Assembly (NCBI RefSeq): GCF_003096415.1
Contig: NZ_QEKH01000042.1
Location: 1-34,554, forward strand
Length of the DNA stretch: 34,554 bases
Direction of reading: 5' to 3'
From: Victivallis vadensis
GTDB taxonomy: Bacteria > Verrucomicrobiota > Lentisphaeria > Victivallales > Victivallaceae
In this document: positions 106 to 34,513 of the stretch, one piece after another
How positions within the stretch are numbered: the first letter of the stretch is position 1
How the letters are laid out: each line of letters opens with the position of its first letter
Made by a program: the position numbers and the translations under genes
The notes under the pieces: generated by a model
The model's database searches: none
What the model saw: only the letters and a program-made list of their open reading frames with translations
What the model was told of the DNA's origin: nothing

Positions 106-1556
106 GTTAATGTCCCAAATTTTGTGATGGGACGTGTTGCTTGACAAAGTTGCATCTGCCCTTTATTTTGAGTTTACTCAACGACTCAACATAAAGGGAA
201 AGCAGATGCAAGGTAAGATTAGCATGGATCTATCGTTTTGTCAATCAGAGACTGGTTTTTCTTTGGACGAACTCGTGGTAAAACTGGGCGATGTGTATGA
301 ACGCAAGGCTTTCGGCGAGCTGCTGAAGATGATCTTGCAGATGGTTCAAGAGATTCTGATGTACCGAATCTTTCATGGCAAAACGGATGCGGTGAAGTGT
401 TGTGACAGCGGCCACCTCCGCATGAATGGCAGCTTTGAGCGTCGGATTCGCACCAGTCTTGGCGAGTTCAAAATGTCGTTTTGGCGGGTGAGTTGTTCCG
501 CTTGCGGCAAGACGTTCTCGCCGCTGCAGCGGTTCATTCATCTGGGGCGTTATCAGACGAAAACCAATGAACTGGAAAAGTTGGTGATCGAAGCCGCGAG
601 CGAAACAAATTATCGTCGAGCCGTTCGAGATTTGGCGCGTGATGGCAAATTACCGGTGTCATTTCATACCGCGCATGGCTGGGTATTACGAACGGATTGC
701 GATGAAATCGATCTTTCCAGGCAGGTGATCGGTTCCGTTCCGATTCAGATCATGCCTGACGGAACCGGCTTCAAGGGCGAAGGGCGTGACGGCAAGGCAC
801 GCAAAGGCGATTTGAAAGTAGTCATCGGCATTACCCAAAAGGGAGAAATCTTCCCACTGGGAAGTTGGGCTGGAACCAGTTGGGACACGATCAATAAGCA
901 ATGAAAAGAGCAAGAGATGAAGCTCCCGGACGGCAGCATTCTGATCTGCGATGGCGAACTGGGATTATCCGAAGCATTTGCCGAATACGCTTCGGAACAG
1001 CAACGCTGCCACTGGCACATCAATCGGGATTTGTACCACGCAATGTACCAGGACGGCGGACGCAAGGCGGATTCAAAACCAATTCAGGACGCATTGGCCG
1101 GAGCGTTGGCGATCGAATTGCCGCAAGAGGATTTTCAATCGGTTTCCGAGCAGGAAAAAAGCGATATTGAGGCGAGAATGGAGAAAACCGAAGCGGCCAT
1201 AGACCAACTGATCGGATATTTTCAAGGGCACGGTTACGAGGCGGCGGCGACCTATATGCGTCGGGCGAAAATCGGCATGTTCGGCTACGTTCGCCGCTGG
1301 CTGAAATGGGGACTGATCTCTCCCAGAGCCTCGTCGATGGTCGAAAGAGTTAGCCGGGAATTGGGCCGCAGGATCAAGAAGATTGCCTACGGGTGGAGCG
1401 ACAAAGGCGTAACGAAAGTTGCGAGAATCATATTGAAACGGTTTGCCAACGCCGGAGCATGGGAGGACTACTGGCAAAAACGCATGGATATTATCGGCAA
1501 CGTCGTCATCGGCGTTGGAAATTACAAGTGTTCTTCACAAAATTTGGGACAATAAC
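106..1556 (+). mobile_element. Insertion sequence with 22-bp terminal inverted repeats
   Basis: The left end (106-127) and right end (1535-1556) are inverted copies of each other, differing at one base near the outer tip. They enclose one transposase gene of about 450 codons, and the stop codon of that gene lies inside the right repeat. Total size about 1.45 kb. I saw no convincing target-site duplication: the flanks are AT-rich and do not match clearly. The element is complete in outline but the transposase is broken, so it probably cannot move by itself. Confidence 0.8.
206..1555 (+). pseudogene. DDE-type IS transposase interrupted by an in-frame TGA
   Basis: Two open segments lie in the same frame, ending at 904 and resuming straight afterwards, separated only by TGA at 902-904. 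Reading through gives a continuous protein of about 450 residues. The context (INKQ-stop-KEQE) suggests a TGG tryptophan codon changed to TGA. Visible features are a Cys-x2-Cys pair (CSACG), a first catalytic Asp in PDGTGFKG and a second in ICDGELGL. The layout resembles ISKra4 or ISLre2/UPF0236-type transposases; I cannot choose between them. I prefer the start at 206 (AAGGGAAAG just upstream) over the GTG at 134. TGA serves as a normal stop in neighbouring genes, so recoding is unlikely. Confidence 0.75.
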
Positions 1557-1707
1557 AAAATGGCCTCTTCACCAGAATTTATGGGGATAATATGCTCATT
1601 TTGAGCGTAATTTTTCTGACAGTCAAAATAAAGTGACGGATATTTCCGTCATTTCTGGCAAAATGACGGATGATTTTCTTGATACTTATTAGGGGGGGTG
1701 GATGAAA

Positions 1708-1884
1708 AAAACATTTTTTCTTCCAAACCGGCAAAAGTCGTATTTACATCAGGTTCTGGCGGCTGTCAAGTGGCAAACGGAATAAAAGCGACCAACGGGA
1801 GCGATTATGCCGGATTGTTGCTTGACTGATGGCGGGTTCTGATGTATCTCACTCCGATTCACCCACAAATTCCCGTGAAGACCC
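1708..1884 (-). repeat. Dispersed repeat, copy 1 (about 177 bp)
   Basis: This segment is the reverse complement of 12964-13141 with only scattered mismatches along its full length. The other copy is inserted into an IS1380 5' fragment and is flanked by a short duplication, so the pair behaves like a small non-autonomous mobile element. No ORF is conserved between the copies. I see no obvious terminal inverted repeats. Confidence 0.8.
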
Positions 1885-2103
1885 ACAAAATGTTTATAAT
1901 CAATACAAATTACAACTCAAGATGGAGGTGAAGTCAAACAAAACACAGGAGGATTACGTCTAAAAATCGGGATTTGCAGTTATTTTTTGGCGCAAAACGA
2001 AAAAAAGCTCATAAAAAAGGATCGCGCAAATCGTTTTTACCAAAAATCACCTTGCAAATCGAAGAAAAGAGCTGTTTTTTACAGCAAAACAACAAATGTG
2101 AAG

Positions 2104-4815: not shown

Positions 4816-4931
4816 GAAACTTGGGTTTAATCTGCATGCAAAGTCCAGTGGCCTTGCAAAGGTGGAATTTTCTGCAATATTACAACAGGAGGATCCGAGG
4901 AACATCAATCAACATCCTCGGTGTTAAGGCC

Positions 4932-5318
4932 ATGAATACAATTTCATCAAGCAAGCCCCTCAAAGAAGATTTTGAACGCAGGTATCGGAAGAATTTGGAA
5001 ATGCTCAATCCGAATGCCGCCGGTTTGGATTTACACAAAGAAGAAATCTGGGTATGTCCGGGAGGGTTCCAAGACAATCATGAACCGGAAGTAAAAACCT
5101 TCGGGACATTAACTGGTGAATTACGTAAGTTAGTCGCCTATCTGAAGGAGAAAAAGGTGACGGCAGTAGCCATGGAAGCAACAGGAATCTATTGGATTCC
5201 TGTATTTGAAATGCTGAAAAATGAGGGTTTCGATACTTGCTTGGTGAATGCCCGCAATATTAAAGGCGTAAAAGGACGTCCTAAAAGCGACTATGCCGAT
5301 TGCGTTTGGATCAGTTAG
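4932..5318 (+). pseudogene. IS110-family transposase, N-terminal fragment
   Basis: About 128 residues from ATG 4932 match the RuvC-like DEDD domain of IS110 transposases: first acidic residue in AAGLDLHKE, second in AMEATGIYWIP, then LVNARNIKGVKGRPKSDYADCVWI. In this family the protein continues for another 200-300 residues after DCVWIQ-type sequence, including the C-terminal transposase_20 domain. Here it stops right after DCVWIS, so only the N-terminal third survives. The frame extends upstream to 4821, but the family start fits 4932. IS110 elements lack long terminal repeats, so I cannot place the left end. Confidence 0.82.
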
Positions 5319-5669: not shown

Positions 5670-5731
5670 ACAGGATTGCGAGACGCTGCCCACCGGCTTC
5701 GTTTCCGGCAAAGAGGCAGTTCTTTCGGATG
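5670..5731 (-). repeat. IS66 transposase scrap, identical over 62 bp to 11183-11244
   Basis: These 62 bp are identical to 11183-11244, where the reverse strand codes for the IS66 C-terminal IRKNCLFAGNEAGGQRLAILYS segment. Similarity fades on both sides, with a loose match continuing to GAGGCGTTCGG. Both copies have the same orientation, and the GRE cassette plus its regulator lies between them. Confidence 0.85.
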
Positions 5732-5761
5732 TTCCAGGTGAGGCGTTCGGACGGCTTGTTG

Positions 5762-6679
5762 TTACCCCTCGACGACCGGGATGTTTGTCCGGTTCTGAAG
5801 GAATTTCAGGTAATCCCCGCTCGCCTTTTTTGAAGGGAATTTCGCTTCACAGAGCAATGGCCGTCCCAGACGCTTATATTTGTCCTCTCCTAATGGCTGG
5901 TAGGGTTCGATTTCAATTCTCCTGACACTTTTCAGCTCTGCCGAGATTTCAAGAAGTTCCTCGCTGTAAGCGGAGGAATCGTTGATCTCCGGAATCCATG
6001 GGCAACGTAAAACCAGCGGCGCGCCGCACGCATCGAGCTTTCGCAGGTTGCCGCGGATCCGCTCCGCCTCCACGCCGGTAAGCCTGCGGTGATCCGCTTC
6101 GGAAGCCTTGAAATCCCACAGCCACAGACTGACCAGCGGAATCAGGGCGCGGATATGCTCGAACGAAGCATAGCCGGATGTTTCAACGCAGGTATGGATT
6201 TTCTCCTTCCGGGCCAGTGAAAGCAGGTGGAACAGATAATCGAAGTGCGCCAGCGGCTCCCCGCCGGAAACCGTCATGCCGCCGCCTGAAGTTTCATAAA
6301 AAACCCGGTCTTTCAGAACTTCCGCCATGACTTCTTCCGGTGAAAGATGCCTGCCGCACAACTCAAGGGCGCCGGCGGGACAGTTTGCGGCGCAAATCCC
6401 GCATTGCGTGCATCGTTTCCGGTCAAAGAGATGCATCTTGTTTTCCATGCGGTGGCATGACGCCGGGCAGACAGTGAAACACGCTCCGCAGCCCACACAC
6501 CGGGACGGGGTAAAGAATATTTCACTTTTTTCTGACTGCGATTCCGGGTTATGGCACCAGAGGCACCGTAAAGGACATCCTTTCAGAAACACAGTCGTGC
6601 GGATGCCCGGCCCGTCATGCACGGAGAAGTGTCCGATATCAAAGATTTTTGTATCAGCAGCGGTCATATCAGGCGGCAT
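5762..6679 (-). CDS. Glycyl-radical enzyme activating protein (radical SAM), copy 1
   Basis: 305 residues, PflA-type radical SAM enzyme that makes the glycyl radical on its partner using SAM. The radical-SAM cluster motif Cys-x3-Cys-x2-Cys is seen at C35, C39 and C42 (GCPLRCLWCHNPE). It is followed by two ferredoxin-like four-cysteine clusters (CVGCGACFTVCP and CTQCGICAANCP), the arrangement of the activases of dehydratase/decarboxylase-type GREs rather than of pyruvate formate-lyase itself. The SGGGMTVSGGEPL motif is the SAM-contact region. It begins 3 bp after the GRE stop codon, so the two are almost certainly co-translated. A second Met (codon 5) is an alternative start. A paralogue sits at 33306. 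Confidence 0.93.
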   Translation of the reverse strand: MPPDMTAADTKIFDIGHFSVHDGPGIRTTVFLKGCPLRCLWCHNPESQSEKSEIFFTPSRCVGCGACFTVCPASCHRMENKMHLFDRKRCTQCGICAANCPAGALELCGRHLSPEEVMAEVLKDRVFYETSGGGMTVSGGEPLAHFDYLFHLLSLARKEKIHTCVETSGYASFEHIRALIPLVSLWLWDFKASEADHRRLTGVEAERIRGNLRKLDACGAPLVLRCPWIPEINDSSAYSEELLEISAELKSVRRIEIEPYQPLGEDKYKRLGRPLLCEAKFPSKKASGDYLKFLQNRTNIPVVEG

Positions 6680-6682
6680 CTC

Positions 6683-8929
6683 TCAGTATATGTTGCGGGA
6701 GATGAATTCACGCTGCTTTTCTTCTGAAAGCGTGATGAATTTTGCGGAATATCCGTAGAGCCGGACAATCAGCGAAGCATGATTCTGCGGATTTTTCTGC
6801 GCATCCTCAAGCTCTTCCCGGCTGATGCAGTTCAGCTGCAGCATACCGCTTCCGCGGACAAGTACCCACGCTTTCAGGAACCCGCTCAGCAGCGCCTCCG
6901 TCAGACCGTTCTTCGACAGGCTCAAGGTCAGCACGGAATTGGCCGGGAAGCGGAGCAGCGGCAACGACGCCGTGTCGGAGAATACCTGCGTTACGGCATC
7001 GGCGTGCGTCCGCGCCGGGGTCAGTCCCTGCGAGAGAAAATCTCCGGCTCTGCGGCCATCCGGTGTCGCCCGGGTGACCTTCGCCCAGTCGATGATATCA
7101 CGGTAACTGTAGAGCCCGCACTGATATATTCCGCCCAATTCGTTGCGGAAACCGGCGACATAATCCGCTAGGTCATTGAGAATGCGAGCCGTCAACCGTG
7201 CGGCTTCCCCCTTGCCGTCGCCCAGATGCGGAGAAGCCATAGCCCGGCAGCGCAGCGCCTCCGCATCACGCCAGTCATTGCGGATCACTGCGAGGAGGCG
7301 CGGCAGCGGAACGGGATTTTCTCCGAAACAGATCGTCTTCAGCGCGAGCAGGGAATCTACCAGTACCGCAACCCCGGTGAACGGAATGCCATGCGGACTG
7401 TAACATGCTCCGCCCGCGGAATAGTCCCGGCCGCTTTCGGCGCAGCCGTTCAGACAGGCGGAGAAAAACGGACAGGGATTGACCTGCGTCCACAGAGCGC
7501 CATATTTCTGCTGGATGCTGAAAAGCTGATGCAGCGCCAGTTTTATATTATCCATTACAATGGAATAGACCCCCTCGAACGAAGTGGCGCCGTCAAGTTT
7601 CCGGAACGGCAGTTCAAGTGACTTTTCATCCTCATTCTCCTCATGGATACTCAGATCAACGCATTTTCCGAGACTGAAATAGCTGTTGGCGCCCTGACTG
7701 TGCTCATATCCCTCCAGAATGTTCTCCCAGCAGCCGCCCGCCACATACCTTGCTGCGCTTTCAGGCGTTTTGCCCGCCATGATCTGGGACGGGATGACAA
7801 TGTCGTCGTTCAGAAACGACAGCACGTTCCGGTCGGCCAGAAAGTCTTTGGCCGCCTCCTGGAACAGAACTGCCGGCGTCCTGGAACTGAAACGGATATG
7901 AATTTTGGGATAGGTCAGTTTCAATTCGCGATGCGCCTTCAGAAAAAGGAAGGTGAGTTCATTGGTCACATCATTGCCGCTCTCATCCAGACCGCCAAGA
8001 ATCAGCGTGTCTCCCTGTTCTCCGGCGTTGAACTGCCCCTCAATCGGACGGTCGAAATCAAGTTTGCTGTCCGTCTGAAGCATATACAGGCAGATCAGTT
8101 CGTAGGCTTCCGCTTCAGTCAGGCGTTTCTCCTGAATATCCCGGCGGTAAAGCCGGATAAGCTGGCGGTCGGGAGACCCCAGAACGGACATGCCGATGCC
8201 GTCGAGAACACTGCCGAGCTCATGGAAGAACCAAAGGCATTCCAGGCCTTCGTAAAATGTCTGCGGCGGATTCCACGGTATCCGGCGTGCGGCCGTCCGT
8301 ATCCGTTCCAGATTTTTCCTTTCCTCCGGAGATTCGGCCGAGGCGAGTTTCTCCTCTGCGGCGGCGGCAAACTTTTCGGCGATTTTCCGAACCGCCAGAA
8401 TGCCGCGCCGGGCGGCTTCATAGAATTCGGCTTTTTCCGGTTCCGTATTTCTGGCATGTCCCTCTTCAAGACGCTTCAATATACCGGACAATCCCAGTTC
8501 CAGCATGTTGGAGAACGGGAAACAGTGGTGATCGTAATCATAGTACGGCCCGTACGACAGATGCAGACCGATCAAATCGCCATAGCAGTACCGCCTGTAA
8601 TCTGCGGCCTTTTCCGGAGAATCTGAATACAGCGCCACATTGCGTAAATACAACCAGCCGCCGGAACTCAGATTAACGCAGCCATCATATTCCGCCATTT
8701 TCAGACCGGTTTCAAAGAAAAACGGATTATGCGGCAGCAAAACCGGTATGAATTTATCGGCGATGATTTCATATTGTCCGGCCTTGAGCATCATGGGGGA
8801 AAGACCGGAATTGGCCTCCGCGAAAGCGTCCATCTCCTTTTTCAGAGGGTTGAACGGCCTTGAGACACAATGGGATGATATCCCACGATAGTAATTTCCC
8901 CATTCCCGTTTGATTTCTGCGTATTTCAT
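6683..8929 (-). CDS. Glycyl radical enzyme of the PFL2/dehydratase type, unknown substrate
   Basis: 748 residues, close to the usual GRE size (about 780-850, so slightly short). The C-terminal glycyl-radical site is VRLYGYSAKF with Gly726, near the consensus RVxGYSA. The thiyl cysteine is seen as YVAGGCWEN, with Cys400 and Glu402. The Cys-x-Glu pattern is that of dehydratases and C-S lyases (glycerol, propanediol, choline, isethionate), but Trp between them is unusual; Val or Ile is usual. The start at 8929 has GGAG upstream. It lies between an SDR oxidoreductase and its activase in one minus-strand operon, with a divergent AraC regulator. A diol/polyol dehydratase or lyase is likely; I would not name the substrate. 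It should be an oxygen-sensitive cytoplasmic enzyme. Confidence 0.88.
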   Translation of the reverse strand: MKYAEIKREWGNYYRGISSHCVSRPFNPLKKEMDAFAEANSGLSPMMLKAGQYEIIADKFIPVLLPHNPFFFETGLKMAEYDGCVNLSSGGWLYLRNVALYSDSPEKAADYRRYCYGDLIGLHLSYGPYYDYDHHCFPFSNMLELGLSGILKRLEEGHARNTEPEKAEFYEAARRGILAVRKIAEKFAAAAEEKLASAESPEERKNLERIRTAARRIPWNPPQTFYEGLECLWFFHELGSVLDGIGMSVLGSPDRQLIRLYRRDIQEKRLTEAEAYELICLYMLQTDSKLDFDRPIEGQFNAGEQGDTLILGGLDESGNDVTNELTFLFLKAHRELKLTYPKIHIRFSSRTPAVLFQEAAKDFLADRNVLSFLNDDIVIPSQIMAGKTPESAARYVAGGCWENILEGYEHSQGANSYFSLGKCVDLSIHEENEDEKSLELPFRKLDGATSFEGVYSIVMDNIKLALHQLFSIQQKYGALWTQVNPCPFFSACLNGCAESGRDYSAGGACYSPHGIPFTGVAVLVDSLLALKTICFGENPVPLPRLLAVIRNDWRDAEALRCRAMASPHLGDGKGEAARLTARILNDLADYVAGFRNELGGIYQCGLYSYRDIIDWAKVTRATPDGRRAGDFLSQGLTPARTHADAVTQVFSDTASLPLLRFPANSVLTLSLSKNGLTEALLSGFLKAWVLVRGSGMLQLNCISREELEDAQKNPQNHASLIVRLYGYSAKFITLSEEKQREFISRNIY

Positions 8930-11045: not shown

Positions 11046-11315
11046 TCATTGACAACTTTGCTTTGCCTCTGGGATCAGCGAATCAATCTGTCCTGCCGGA
11101 GTGGAATTCAAACGCGGCAGAACGTCTTCGAGCCACTTGCGAAAGCAGATGCCGTTCGCTTTGCATGTTGCAGCGAATGAATACAGGATTGCGAGACGCT
11201 GCCCACCGGCTTCGTTTCCGGCAAAGAGGCAGTTCTTTCGGATGATCGCAATTCCCCGGTTGAGGCGTTCGGCCGGATATTCTAATGTTAGAATATCCGG
11301 CCTTATCCTCATCAT
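11046..11315 (-). pseudogene. IS66-family transposase, C-terminal fragment
   Basis: The frame reads ...YPAERLNRGIAIIRKNCLFAGNEAGGQRLAILYSFAATCKANGICFRKWLEDVLPRLN..., which matches the well-conserved IS66 (TnpC) C-terminus: IGRKNWLFA…GA…A..YSLIETAKANG.dP..YL..vL..LP. Only about 70 residues of a protein of roughly 500 remain. The upstream end runs into a 15-bp perfect palindrome (11271-11302), where the frame no longer matches the family. A 62-bp piece of the same segment is repeated at 5670-5731. Confidence 0.82.
11271..11302. repeat. Perfect 15-bp palindrome at the IS66 fragment boundary
   Basis: 11271-11285 and 11288-11302 are perfect reverse complements with a 2-nt centre. Such a long stem with almost no loop forms a cruciform or a very stable hairpin. 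It sits where the IS66 homology ends, which suggests it arose during the rearrangement by inverted joining. Confidence 0.85.
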
Positions 11316-12825: not shown

Positions 12826-13230
12826 AAGCCGTGAAATAATCGGAGGATTCAAGGATGGAATAGTTGAAAAAGTTGCTGGTTTGCAGTATATTATGTATGG
12901 TAATCGCATCATGGACTTACTCAACCCGATAGGAGAAACGATGGCAAATCGGTTTAGAATTACGGGCTCTTCGCGGAAATTTGTGGGTGAATTGGAGAGA
13001 GATACATCAGAACCCGCCGGCAGTCAAGCAACAATCCGGCATAATCGCTCCCGTGGGTCGCTTTTATTCCGTTTGCCACTTGACAGCCGCCAGAACCTGA
13101 TGTGAATACGGCTTTTGCCGGTTTGGAAGAAAAAATGTTTTACGCAAAGCAGGGAAGAGATTATAGCCACAGGGGGCATCGCCATGGTGGGAGCCTTGCT
13201 GAACGATAATCGAGGCCTGGCAAGCAACGA
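12826..13230 (+). mobile_element. IS1380-family 5' fragment, interrupted by the 178-bp repeat
   Basis: The leader (CCGTGAAATAA…TTGCAGTATATTA…ACTCAACCCGATAGGAGAAACG) and the first codons (MANRFRIT) are nearly the same as at 34222-34360, where the protein continues uninterrupted as MATRFKITQSREDLIATGGIAMVGALLNDNRGLAS. Here the coding sequence breaks at 12964, a 178-bp repeat follows, and the transposase text resumes at 13142 (ACGCAAAGCAGGGAAGA…GGGGGCATCGCCATGGTGGGAGCC) up to about 13230. The rest of the transposase is missing. Confidence 0.72.
12964..13141 (+). repeat. Dispersed repeat, copy 2, inserted into the IS1380 fragment
   Basis: 178 bp, reverse complement of 1708-1884 apart from scattered mismatches. 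TTACG occurs on both sides (12960-12964 and 13140-13144), whereas the uninterrupted IS1380 copy at 34348-34352 has it once; this is what a 4-5 bp target duplication would look like. There is no coding capacity. Confidence 0.8.
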
Positions 13231-16839: not shown

Positions 16840-17337
16840 TCAATATCTTGCGTAAACCTCTCGAAAACATTTGAACCACGGACAATGCCGTCCGAACTTC
16901 ACAATAAAAACATTCGCATGTCGGGTAAATCTGCATCCGACATAAATCAAATCCTGCAAAACCGACCGCAGCCGACGCTGTGCGACATTGATTTTAACCG
17001 GCCAAATTTCTTTGAAGGTCAAGGCTTCCTGCCCGATACGGCGCAAGCAATTGTTAGCCAGCGCCGCCAAGTTTAAAATCAGTGCATTGGTGGCGAATTT
17101 GCCGCGGGGTAAACGCTCAAGCCCCATGTCGCTTTTTAATTCGCTGTGGAATTGTTCACTGGTTGCGTGTGCGCGGTAGAGTTCAATGCAAATCGCTTCA
17201 TTCTCCAGTAAATTCGTCCACCATGTTGAACCTTCAAGTTCCGGAAGGAGAAGAGGTTGACCGTCTGCATCGGTTAGCCGCCCGTTTTCATTGTAAAGGG
17301 TGATGGGATCCGGTTTTTCCGACAAAAAAGTCATCAT
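16840..17337 (-). pseudogene. IS1380-family transposase C-terminal fragment, with a foreign N-terminus
   Basis: 165 residues. From about residue 22 the sequence is a clear IS1380 C-terminus: LLLPELEGSTWWTNL…ICIELYRAHATSEQFHSELKSDMGLERLPRGKFATNALILNLAALANNCLRRIG, with the family's YxxH-t-eQFHSE-K-D glutamate motif. The N-terminal two thirds of the transposase are missing. Residues 1-20 (MTFLSEKPDPITLYNENGRL after a first Met) instead look like the first residues of the GH36-like protein at 28359 (MKFLSDKADSITLYSETGKI), with a GAGGA ribosome site before the ATG. The ORF may therefore be a GH36-like gene start joined in frame to a transposase end. Confidence 0.72.
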
Positions 17338-33150: not shown

Positions 33151-33309
33151 ACGGAAGACTATATCACCGAAGTGTATTGTTTCATAGACGAGGAAACGTA
33201 TTCAGAATGTGATCTCTGGCGGTGTCGGGCCTGTCTGCGGTCGGACCGGCCGTGTCCGCTGTTCTGCAGTGATGGAAATTCTGAAAAAACAGAAGAGAAT
33301 GTGGAATGA
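33145..33309 (+). CDS. Small Cys-rich protein coupled to the activase (possibly a chimeric remnant)
   Basis: 54 codons: MLTEDYITEVYCFIDEETYSECDLWRCRACLRSDRPCPLFC in outline, then an acidic tail. The first 16 residues look like the beginning of IS982-type transposases (xxTEIYCxxDDF); the rest carries five Cys residues in about 20 positions, which could bind a metal or cluster. Its TGA overlaps the ATG of the activase (AATGA), so the two are translationally coupled. It may be a real small partner of a radical enzyme (as in 4-hydroxyphenylacetate decarboxylase, whose small Fe-S subunit precedes the activase gene), or an IS start joined to the end of a lost gene. I lean to the remnant. Confidence 0.4.
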   Translation: MLTEDYITEVYCFIDEETYSECDLWRCRACLRSDRPCPLFCSDGNSEKTEENVE

Positions 33310-34208
33310 CTGCCGGAATGATTTTCAATATCCAGAAATTCAGCATACATGATGGTCCGGGTATTCGGACCGCCGTGTTTCTGAAGGGGTGTCCCCTGCG
33401 TTGTGTCTGGTGCCACAACCCGGAGTCGTGGGCCGGAAAAGCGGAACTGCTTTTCAACGCCGCGAAATGTACGGTTTGCGGTCGCTGTGTCCCGGCGTGT
33501 CCGCATGGCTGCCATAAAATCGAGCAGGGGCGGCACGTCTTCAACCGGGAATTTTGCGTCGGTTGCGGAAAGTGCGTCAAACACTGTCTCTCTGATGCTC
33601 TCGAACTGTGCGGCCAACTCCGCAGTGTCGAAGAGGTCATCTCCGAGGTGCTGAAAGATAAGCTCTTCTACGACAACTCCGGCGGCGGCATAACGCTTTC
33701 CGGCGGCGAACCGATGGCCCAGTTCGATTTTACGCAGGAACTGTTGAAACGGGCAAAAGAGGCCGGACTGCACGTCTGTCTTGAGACATGCGGATTCGCA
33801 CCGCAGGAATATTATGCGCGGATTCTGCCTTTTGTCGATATCTTTCTCTATGACCTGAAAACGGTCGATGCCGAAAAACACCGCAGATTGACCGGGCAGG
33901 ATCTCGCCGTCATTCATGGAAATCTGCGTTTTCTGGACGAGAACGGCGCCCATATACGCCTGCGCTGTCCGCTGGTTCCCGGCGTGAACGATTCAGAGGA
34001 GGAACTCCGCGGGATCGGTGAGCTCGCGGAAACGCTTTCTCATGTTGCCGGGATTGATGTGGAACCCTATCATCCGCTGGGAGTGTCCAAAGCGCGTCAA
34101 CTGGGTATGCCGGAGTTTTTTGAAGCGCCGTTTACCCCGCAAGAACTGTGGTCGGCCTGGATCGCGCAGATCGCGCGGGCGACCCGGATCCCGGTCGGAA
34201 AACAATAA
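33306..34208 (+). CDS. Glycyl-radical enzyme activating protein (radical SAM), copy 2 without a partner gene
   Basis: 300 residues, same family and architecture as copy 1: radical-SAM Cys29-x3-Cys33-x2-Cys36 (GCPLRCVWCHNPE), two ferredoxin-type clusters (CTVCGRCVPACPHGC and CVGCGKCVKHC), SGGGITLSGGEPM, ETCG and DLKTVD. Complete by length. No GRE gene sits next to it in this window: upstream is the carbohydrate operon and a short Cys-rich ORF, downstream an IS1380 fragment. It could serve the GRE at 6683 or an enzyme outside the window, or be what is left of a deleted locus. ATG overlaps the stop of the preceding small ORF. Confidence 0.92.
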   Translation: MTAGMIFNIQKFSIHDGPGIRTAVFLKGCPLRCVWCHNPESWAGKAELLFNAAKCTVCGRCVPACPHGCHKIEQGRHVFNREFCVGCGKCVKHCLSDALELCGQLRSVEEVISEVLKDKLFYDNSGGGITLSGGEPMAQFDFTQELLKRAKEAGLHVCLETCGFAPQEYYARILPFVDIFLYDLKTVDAEKHRRLTGQDLAVIHGNLRFLDENGAHIRLRCPLVPGVNDSEEELRGIGELAETLSHVAGIDVEPYHPLGVSKARQLGMPEFFEAPFTPQELWSAWIAQIARATRIPVGKQ

Positions 34209-34221
34209 TCCTAAATCCGTG

Positions 34222-34513
34222 AAATAACAGGTAAAATTAAAGTTAAAACAGAGGCAAACCTCTTGGGTTGCAGTATATTACATGAGAATACAACATAACG
34301 AATGGACTCAACCCGATAGGAGAAACGATGGCAACGCGGTTTAAAATTACGCAAAGCAGGGAAGATCTGATAGCCACTGGCGGCATCGCCATGGTTGGAG
34401 CCTTGCTGAATGACAATCGTGGCTTGGCAAGTGTGGACAAGCTGACAACGGATCGTATCAAGGGAACCTCTATCAATAGTTTTTTGAAAGGAATTCCGTT
34501 TATTCATGTCTGA
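34222..34513 (+). mobile_element. IS1380-family 5' fragment, uninterrupted copy
   Basis: Same leader as at 12826 and in the same orientation, followed by ATG 34328 and MATRFKITQSREDLIATGGIAMVGALLNDNRGLASVDKLTTDRIKG, the N-terminal region of an IS1380 transposase. The frame then turns into TSINSFLKGIPFIHV-stop at 34513, far short of the roughly 450-residue family length. A stem follows (34510-34538, about CTGAAAATCTC with GAGATTTTTCAG). Its end is the window end, so a longer element outside cannot be excluded. Confidence 0.65.

What the first reader, a model, noticed from the sequence alone, without database searches (positions are those of the whole stretch)
12960..13144. 178-bp MITE-like repeat inserted into an IS1380 fragment with a short flanking duplication
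The insertion splits MATRFKIT-|-acgcaaag at TTACG, which appears on both sides here but once in the intact copy at 34348. The second repeat copy (1708-1884) stands alone in an intergenic region in inverted orientation. No coding capacity and near-identical length suggest a non-autonomous mobile element not recognisable as a known family.
Basis: seen in the sequence. Interest (0 to 1): 0.58.

Follow-up and report, generated by a model that had tools for sequence, protein, structure and literature searches.

The report
Broken MITE end carrying conserved hairpin
The repeat is the cut-off end of a small DNA parasite that depends on ISL3-type jumping genes, and that end carries a conserved hairpin, probably an RNA, which is also found in a second, unrelated kind of jumping gene of the same bacterial group.

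Summary
The repeat is real (94% over 177 nt), but it is not a 178-bp unit. Window copy 2 is one end of a complete two-ended element of 322 bp (1563-1884), with tips GCCTCTTC.../GGGTCTTC... and a perfect 8-bp target duplication, ACAAAATG. Its tips and left end match autonomous ISL3-family insertion sequences in relatives, for example G035: 1520 bp, 8-bp duplication, ISL3 transposase. The element at 12960-13144 is the left end only. Its right side stops in the loop of a small hairpin, so TTACG is most simply the remnant of an 8-bp duplication after a deletion.

The unexpected part is inside. Most of the unit is a covarying hairpin with a near-invariant core that reads outward at the element's end. 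The same module sits in at least two deeply separated ISL3 clades (transposases 24% identical) and downstream of the transposase gene of an unrelated DDE family with an IS6-like domain. It is largely confined to Lentisphaeria (40 of 197 genomes). No Rfam family matched, and my paper searches found no description. I read it as an IS-end RNA module. That it forms a hairpin is well supported; strand, expression and function are inferred.

The parts
12965..13139 (+). Truncated left end of an ISL3-type MITE or IS (tip GGCTCTTCGCGGAAATTTGTGGG first), no second tip
   Evidence: aligns with the first ~175 nt of the 322-bp MITE and of the G035 ISL3 element; stops in the loop of the A/T hairpin
12957..12964 (.).
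   Evidence: ISL3-type elements here have 8-bp duplications
13140..13144 (.). Right TTACG: probable remnant of the 8-bp duplication after a deletion; its TT also fits the element's T-run
   Evidence: paralogous uninserted site at 34347
13003..13106 (-). Hairpin module R1 (copy 1), reads outward over the element's tip
   Evidence: 112.1 bits with model R1; fold z -3.63 on the minus strand, +0.71 on the plus strand
13116..13139 (+). Half of the A/T-apex hairpin; the truncation falls in its loop
1563..1884 (-). Complete 322-bp ISL3-type MITE
   Evidence: tips GCCTCTTCACCAG and GGGTCTTCACGGG, perfect 8-bp duplication
1555..1562 (.). Target duplication ACAAAATG, left
1885..1892 (.). Target duplication ACAAAATG, right
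1563..1586 (+). Right-type tip GCCTCTTCACCAGAATTTATGGGG
   Evidence: matches the G035 ISL3 right tip
1862..1884 (-). Left-type tip GGGTCTTCACGGGAATTTGTGGG
1743..1846 (+). Hairpin module R1 (copy 2), reads outward
   Evidence: 115.9 bits with model R1
1700..1724 (.). A/T-apex hairpin beside the module
   Evidence: a similar palindrome beside the module in the ISL3 and family B elements
1645..1670 (+). Terminator-like stem in the middle of the MITE
   Evidence: 4 found in 1500-2200, 0.7 expected

Best explanation
The sequence at 12960-13144 is the left end of an ISL3-type element, either a MITE like the one at 1563-1884 or a full IS. It inserted with an 8-bp target duplication (GAATTACG) and later lost its right part by a deletion ending in the loop of a small hairpin, so that about TTACG of the right duplication is left. 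The MITE family is moved in trans by ISL3 transposases (inferred from shared tips and 8-bp duplications). Inside the end lies a conserved module of about 104 nt that folds into a long hairpin. Probable mechanism, inferred: it works as an RNA read outward across the element's end, as the 3' tail of the transposase message in family B and as an outward or antisense transcript in ISL3 elements, and it controls what happens to transcripts that cross that end (read-through, stability or processing). I hold the identity at about 0.85, a functional hairpin at about 0.8, RNA rather than DNA at about 0.6, and the transcript-control role at about 0.3.
For: Tips and duplications: 9 of 90 hit rows had two tips with matching 8-mers, 8 of them perfect. 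Among these are three ISL3 elements of 1488-1520 bp and MITEs of 308, 310, 322, 433 (one mismatch), 530 and 531 bp. Transposases: L099, L092 and L076 all exceed the NCBIfam ISL3 cut-off, as does L200. ISL3 transposase homology lies just inside the module on the opposite strand in 13 of the 50 rows with at least 100 nt of inside sequence. Hairpin: 15 of 31 pairs show changes on both sides, covariation score 0.299 against 0.112 in shuffles (0 of 500 as high). Core against surroundings: L099 and L092 share 84% of the inner core but 46% of the outer arms, and their transposases 24%. Family B: 6 of 7 elements with sequence after the stop codon carry a hairpin there; four elements, L086, L211, L212 and L215, have perfect 8-bp duplications. 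RNA-like features: tandem G.A in 41 of 50 cores; outward strand folds better in 18 of 21 representatives.
Against: No expression data. Outside the GGTTC block, G-U and A-C mismatches are equally common (32 and 28), so the strand is not settled by wobble pairs. Related sequences can give covariation without selection on structure. The window's genome has no PF01610 match, so no mover was found for its MITE, although the assembly is in 87 contigs. Some ISL3 elements (L180, L183, L186) lack the module, so it is not needed for transposition in general. A one-step insertion with a 5-bp duplication is not excluded. R1 scored family B members L212 and L215 weakly (12.5 and 24.7 bits, there as L207 and L209); L210 and L211 were joined by folding and by eye only.
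Confidence: 0.82

Rival explanations
1. The hairpin acts as DNA: a cruciform or a protein-binding palindrome near the IS end that tunes transposase access or insulates the element, without any RNA.
For: G-U and A-C mismatches are equal outside the GGTTC block (32 vs 28); the reverse strand also folds well (mean z -3.85); GGTTC is a direct repeat on both arms in most cores (37 and 42 of 50), as a protein-binding repeat would be.
Against: The conserved tandem G.A (41 of 50) and the purine-rich internal loops fit a single strand of outward sense; two transposases from unrelated families would have to share one site; in three cores the GGTTC pair block is replaced by Watson-Crick pairs (L089, L084, L065).
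Confidence: 0.3
2. The 12960-13144 copy is itself a mobile unit of 175 bp that inserted with a 5-bp duplication.
For: TTACG flanks it exactly and is single at the paralogous site 34347.
Against: No second tip; every two-ended relative found has 8-bp duplications and extends past this point; the breakpoint lies in a hairpin loop and shares TT with the flank.
Confidence: 0.08
3. Palindrome with no function of its own: the pairing is kept by template switching during replication, and the similarity reflects recent exchange between IS.
For: Template switching can create and maintain hairpins (PMC8794818, start of abstract seen in the listing); the module is patchy among ISL3 elements.
Against: The inner core is far more conserved than the arms in comparisons between distant ISL3 elements (84% vs 46% for L099/L092); L099 against family B L086 goes the other way (71% vs 78%).
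Confidence: 0.15
4. Divergent promoter pair: TTGACA-like boxes at the base of the stem drive transcription both into and out of the element, and the core is their shared operator.
For: TTGAC(A/T) occurs on both strands at the stem base in most cores listed.
Against: No peak of -10-like hexamers at 17 nt: mean score outward 1.62 at 17 but 1.78 at 10; inward 1.66 at 17 but 1.71 at 21.
Confidence: 0.12

Closest known systems
ISL3-family insertion sequences and MITEs derived from them
   Same: Tips GGNTCTTC.../GNNTCTTC..., 8-bp duplications, ISL3 transposase in full-length relatives
   Different: Left end lengthened by a hairpin module that some ISL3 relatives lack
IS6/IS240-like DDE transposases (family B)
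   Same: DDE domain matches PF13610 and the IS6 model; 8-bp duplications
   Different: About 510 aa with a zinc-finger-like N-terminal extension; below the IS6 cut-off (72.6 and 84.8 against 125 bits); hairpin between stop codon and right tip
IS110 bridge RNA
   Same: Structured RNA-like stretch in the non-coding end of an IS (bridge RNA recalled, not tested by model)
   Different: Neither carrier family is IS110; apical loop conserved instead of target-variable; 8-bp duplications
TnpB/IscB omegaRNA (HEARO, RAGATH-18-derived reRNA)
   Same: RNA-like module reading out over an IS end
   Different: No gathering-level Rfam match in the window; no TnpB or IscB among the neighbouring proteins I identified; DDE transposases
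IS10 RNA-OUT
   Same: Outward hairpin RNA on the strand opposite to the transposase gene, as in the ISL3 elements (RNA-OUT recalled)
   Different: In family B it lies on the transposase's own strand, downstream of the gene

Membership tests
MITE of the ISL3 family | Two terminal inverted repeats shared with an autonomous ISL3 element | tested here: met
   For the 322-bp element; not met for 12965-13139, which has one tip only
MITE of the ISL3 family | 8-bp target duplication | tested here: met
   ACAAAATG on both sides of 1563-1884; for copy 1 only 6 of 8 positions agree
MITE of the ISL3 family | Several independent insertions | tested here: met
   L069 and L151 carry 310- and 308-bp relatives with perfect duplications
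MITE of the ISL3 family | No transposase gene; moved in trans | not testable with these tools
   No transposase gene in it; trans movement inferred; own genome has no PF01610 match
ISL3 family (G035, G050 and L104 elements) | ISL3 transposase | tested here: met
   NF033550 over cut-off for L099 (G035) and L092 (G050); L104 by tblastn only
IS6 family (family B) | Transposase over the curated IS6 cut-off | tested here: not met
   72.6 and 84.8 bits against 125
Known Rfam RNA family | Match at gathering score | tested here: not met
   Window: 0 matches; in 8 of the 31 loci then held: one tRNA plus two chance-level miRNA matches
IS110 bridge RNA | Lies in an IS110 element | tested here: not met
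   Carriers are ISL3 and family B; one IS110 gene lies next to a tipless copy (L009/L085)
omegaRNA (TnpB/IscB) | TnpB or IscB nuclease next to the RNA | tested here: inconclusive
   None among the neighbours identified; no dedicated nuclease search run

The most novel reading that the evidence does not exclude
A new class of IS-borne structured RNA: one outward-reading RNA module, perhaps native to a new DDE family (family B), has been passed to at least two ISL3 lineages and their MITEs within Lentisphaeria, where it does the same job at the end of unrelated transposons.
Probability: 0.45. Interest if true: 0.75.

Novelty: new variant of a known kind. Interest (0 to 1): 0.5.

Why it matters
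MITEs of ISL3 elements are ordinary. A conserved hairpin module shared by transposons with unrelated transposases is not: it suggests a function tied to being at the end of an inserted element rather than to one enzyme, and it offers a sequence handle (model R1) to test it. It may also be one reason why assemblies of these genomes break at these elements.

Tried and rejected
Rfam at gathering and at E-value 1: nothing relevant. G-U against A-C as a strand test: not decisive. Divergent-promoter idea: no -10 peak. I first called the A/T hairpin a terminator (notes); its T-run lies inside the stem, so I dropped that, although real terminator-like stems lie in the middle of the MITE. Contigs that start inside the hairpin are probably an assembly effect: the cut lies about 141 nt from the tip in several contigs, as for a fixed k-mer. 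Papers: eight searches, listings and abstract starts only; no paper opened; none of the titles or abstract starts listed describes the module. Tree of 13 ISL3 transposases picked by me, broken ones left out: the module needs 3 changes (at least 2 by well-supported branches), but 55 of 500 label shuffles do as well, so patchiness is suggestive only. Rows dropped: alignment A2 used 15 of the 19 full-length cores (two duplicates and two degraded ones left out; 12 further loci were cut by contig ends). and later used 50 distinct cores of at least 94 nt and 55 bits out of 90 hit rows; the 90 rows include places fetched by two routes.

Full report
OBSERVATION. The two window copies match over 177 nt at 94% on opposite strands. 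TTACG flanks copy 1 and occurs once at 34347. The window's genome holds four matches in all: the two in the window, a 130-nt one on C48 and a 42-nt one at the edge of C15. Of 61 genomes (own and relatives), 17 have a match, many at contig ends.

WHAT THE COPIES ARE. It lies just beyond a split transposase gene (134-904 and 917-1555) that matches the ISH6 model: 213 bits below and 244 bits above the cut-off of 240. Relatives of 310 bp (L069) and 308 bp (L151) share both tips and the middle, each with its own perfect duplication. Full elements with the same kind of tips are ISL3 insertion sequences: G035 1520 bp, G050 1518 bp and L104 1488 bp, all with perfect 8-bp duplications. The G035 and G050 transposases exceed the ISL3 cut-off. 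So the MITE is ISL3-derived, and 12965-13139 is its (or a full element's) left end. That copy ends in the loop of an A/T-rich hairpin, and its TT overlaps TTACG. The simplest account is an 8-bp duplication GAATTACG followed by a deletion. This last step is inference.

NO MOVER FOUND AT HOME. PF01610 has no match in the window's genome and matches in 27 of 61 genomes overall. The genome is in 87 contigs, so one may be hidden.

THE HAIRPIN MODULE. On the outward strand, copy 1 folds with z -3.63, against +0.71 on the other strand. Aligned over 15 sequences, the structure has 31 pairs, 89.4% of cells paired, 15 pairs with changes on both sides, and a covariation score of 0.299 against 0.112 shuffled (0 of 500 as high); sliding the partners destroys it. 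The structure came from folding one of these sequences, so the slid control leans in its favour. A core of the type CAAACGGAATAAAAG...TTATGCCGGATTG is nearly invariant. Between its halves a small stem keeps tandem G.A (41 of 50 cores) while the flanking pairs change between C-G, G-C and A-U. Three cores (L066, L076, L087) have an extra hairpin inserted there.

WHERE IT OCCURS. Model R1 finds it in 3 places in the own genome at the stricter setting; one search lists 5 matches, two of them the same places read on the other strand. It matches 20 of 61 relatives, 40 of 197 genomes of the class and 30 of 387 of the phylum, 28 of those in the class and 2 weak. A strict DNA pattern over 84,980 species genomes gave 62 stretches. 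Of these, 58 carry Lentisphaeria-type names (Lentisphaeria, Lentisphaerae, Victivallales, Victivallaceae, Oligosphaeraceae), two are 'uncultured bacterium', one a Neomarinimicrobiota MAG and one a Verrucomicrobia MAG. One IMG/VR contig of 2.9 million carries it beside a third kind of ISL3 transposase gene.

TWO CARRIER FAMILIES. In ISL3 elements the module lies between the left tip and the transposase gene and reads away from the gene. In family B it lies after the stop codon, on the gene's own strand, before the right tip. In both it reads outward, with an A/T palindrome on the inner side. Family B is an element of 1855-2021 bp with a transposase of about 510 aa, IS6-like in its DDE part but below the IS6 cut-off; 15 of 197 class genomes have it. 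Of nine family B loci examined, two end at the gene, one (L213, 162 nt downstream) lacks the hairpin and six have it. In L210 and L211 I joined it by folding and by the GGAATAA/TTATGCCG motif, not by the model. The stretches folded were chosen by me around the hairpin.

CONSERVATION AGAINST DESCENT. The L099 and L092 transposases are 24% identical, yet the inner core is 84% identical and the arms 46%. L180, whose transposase is 56% identical to L099's, has no module, and neither have L183 and L186. A tree of 13 transposases needs 3 changes, at least 2 by well-supported branches; label shuffling does as well in 55 of 500 cases, so the patchiness is suggestive only. L099 and family B L086 share more of the arms (78%) than of the core (71%), which fits an exchange of the module between families.

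STRAND. The outward strand folds better in 18 of 21 representatives (mean z -4.92 against -3.85). G-U exceeds A-C (65 to 30) only if the GGTTC block is counted; without it they are 32 and 28. I therefore call the outward RNA likely, not shown.

MECHANISM. Shown: tips, duplications, carrier genes, pairing. Inferred: movement of the MITE in trans, the deletion, expression as RNA, and a role in the fate of transcripts crossing the element's end. I found no description of this module in print; that statement rests on eight searches of the held library, of which I saw listings and abstract starts only.

Noticed in passing
window 134-904 and 917-1555: ISH6-family transposase gene split into two frames; the 322-bp MITE sits right after it.
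   Followed up: partly
G031 C83 (L086), L080, L210-L212, L215: Apparently unnamed IS family: DDE transposase of about 510 aa with a zinc-finger-like N-terminus, 8-bp duplications, 1855-2021 bp.
   Followed up: partly
window 5670-5734 and 11183-11247: 65-bp direct repeat, 98% identical; the second copy lies in an IS66 transposase remnant.
   Followed up: no
window 4821-5318: IS110-family transposase fragment (below cut-off).
   Followed up: no
window 16840-17337: C-terminal piece of an IS1380-type transposase.
   Followed up: no
window 21939-22238/27313-27612, 22476-22775/27850-28149 and 25040-25303/29949-30212: Duplicated blocks of gene-sized ORFs, 75-82% identical.
   Followed up: no
window 5762-8929 and 33306-34208: Glycyl-radical enzyme (PFL-like); two ORFs whose sequences look like radical-SAM activating enzymes (my reading, no search run).
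   Followed up: no
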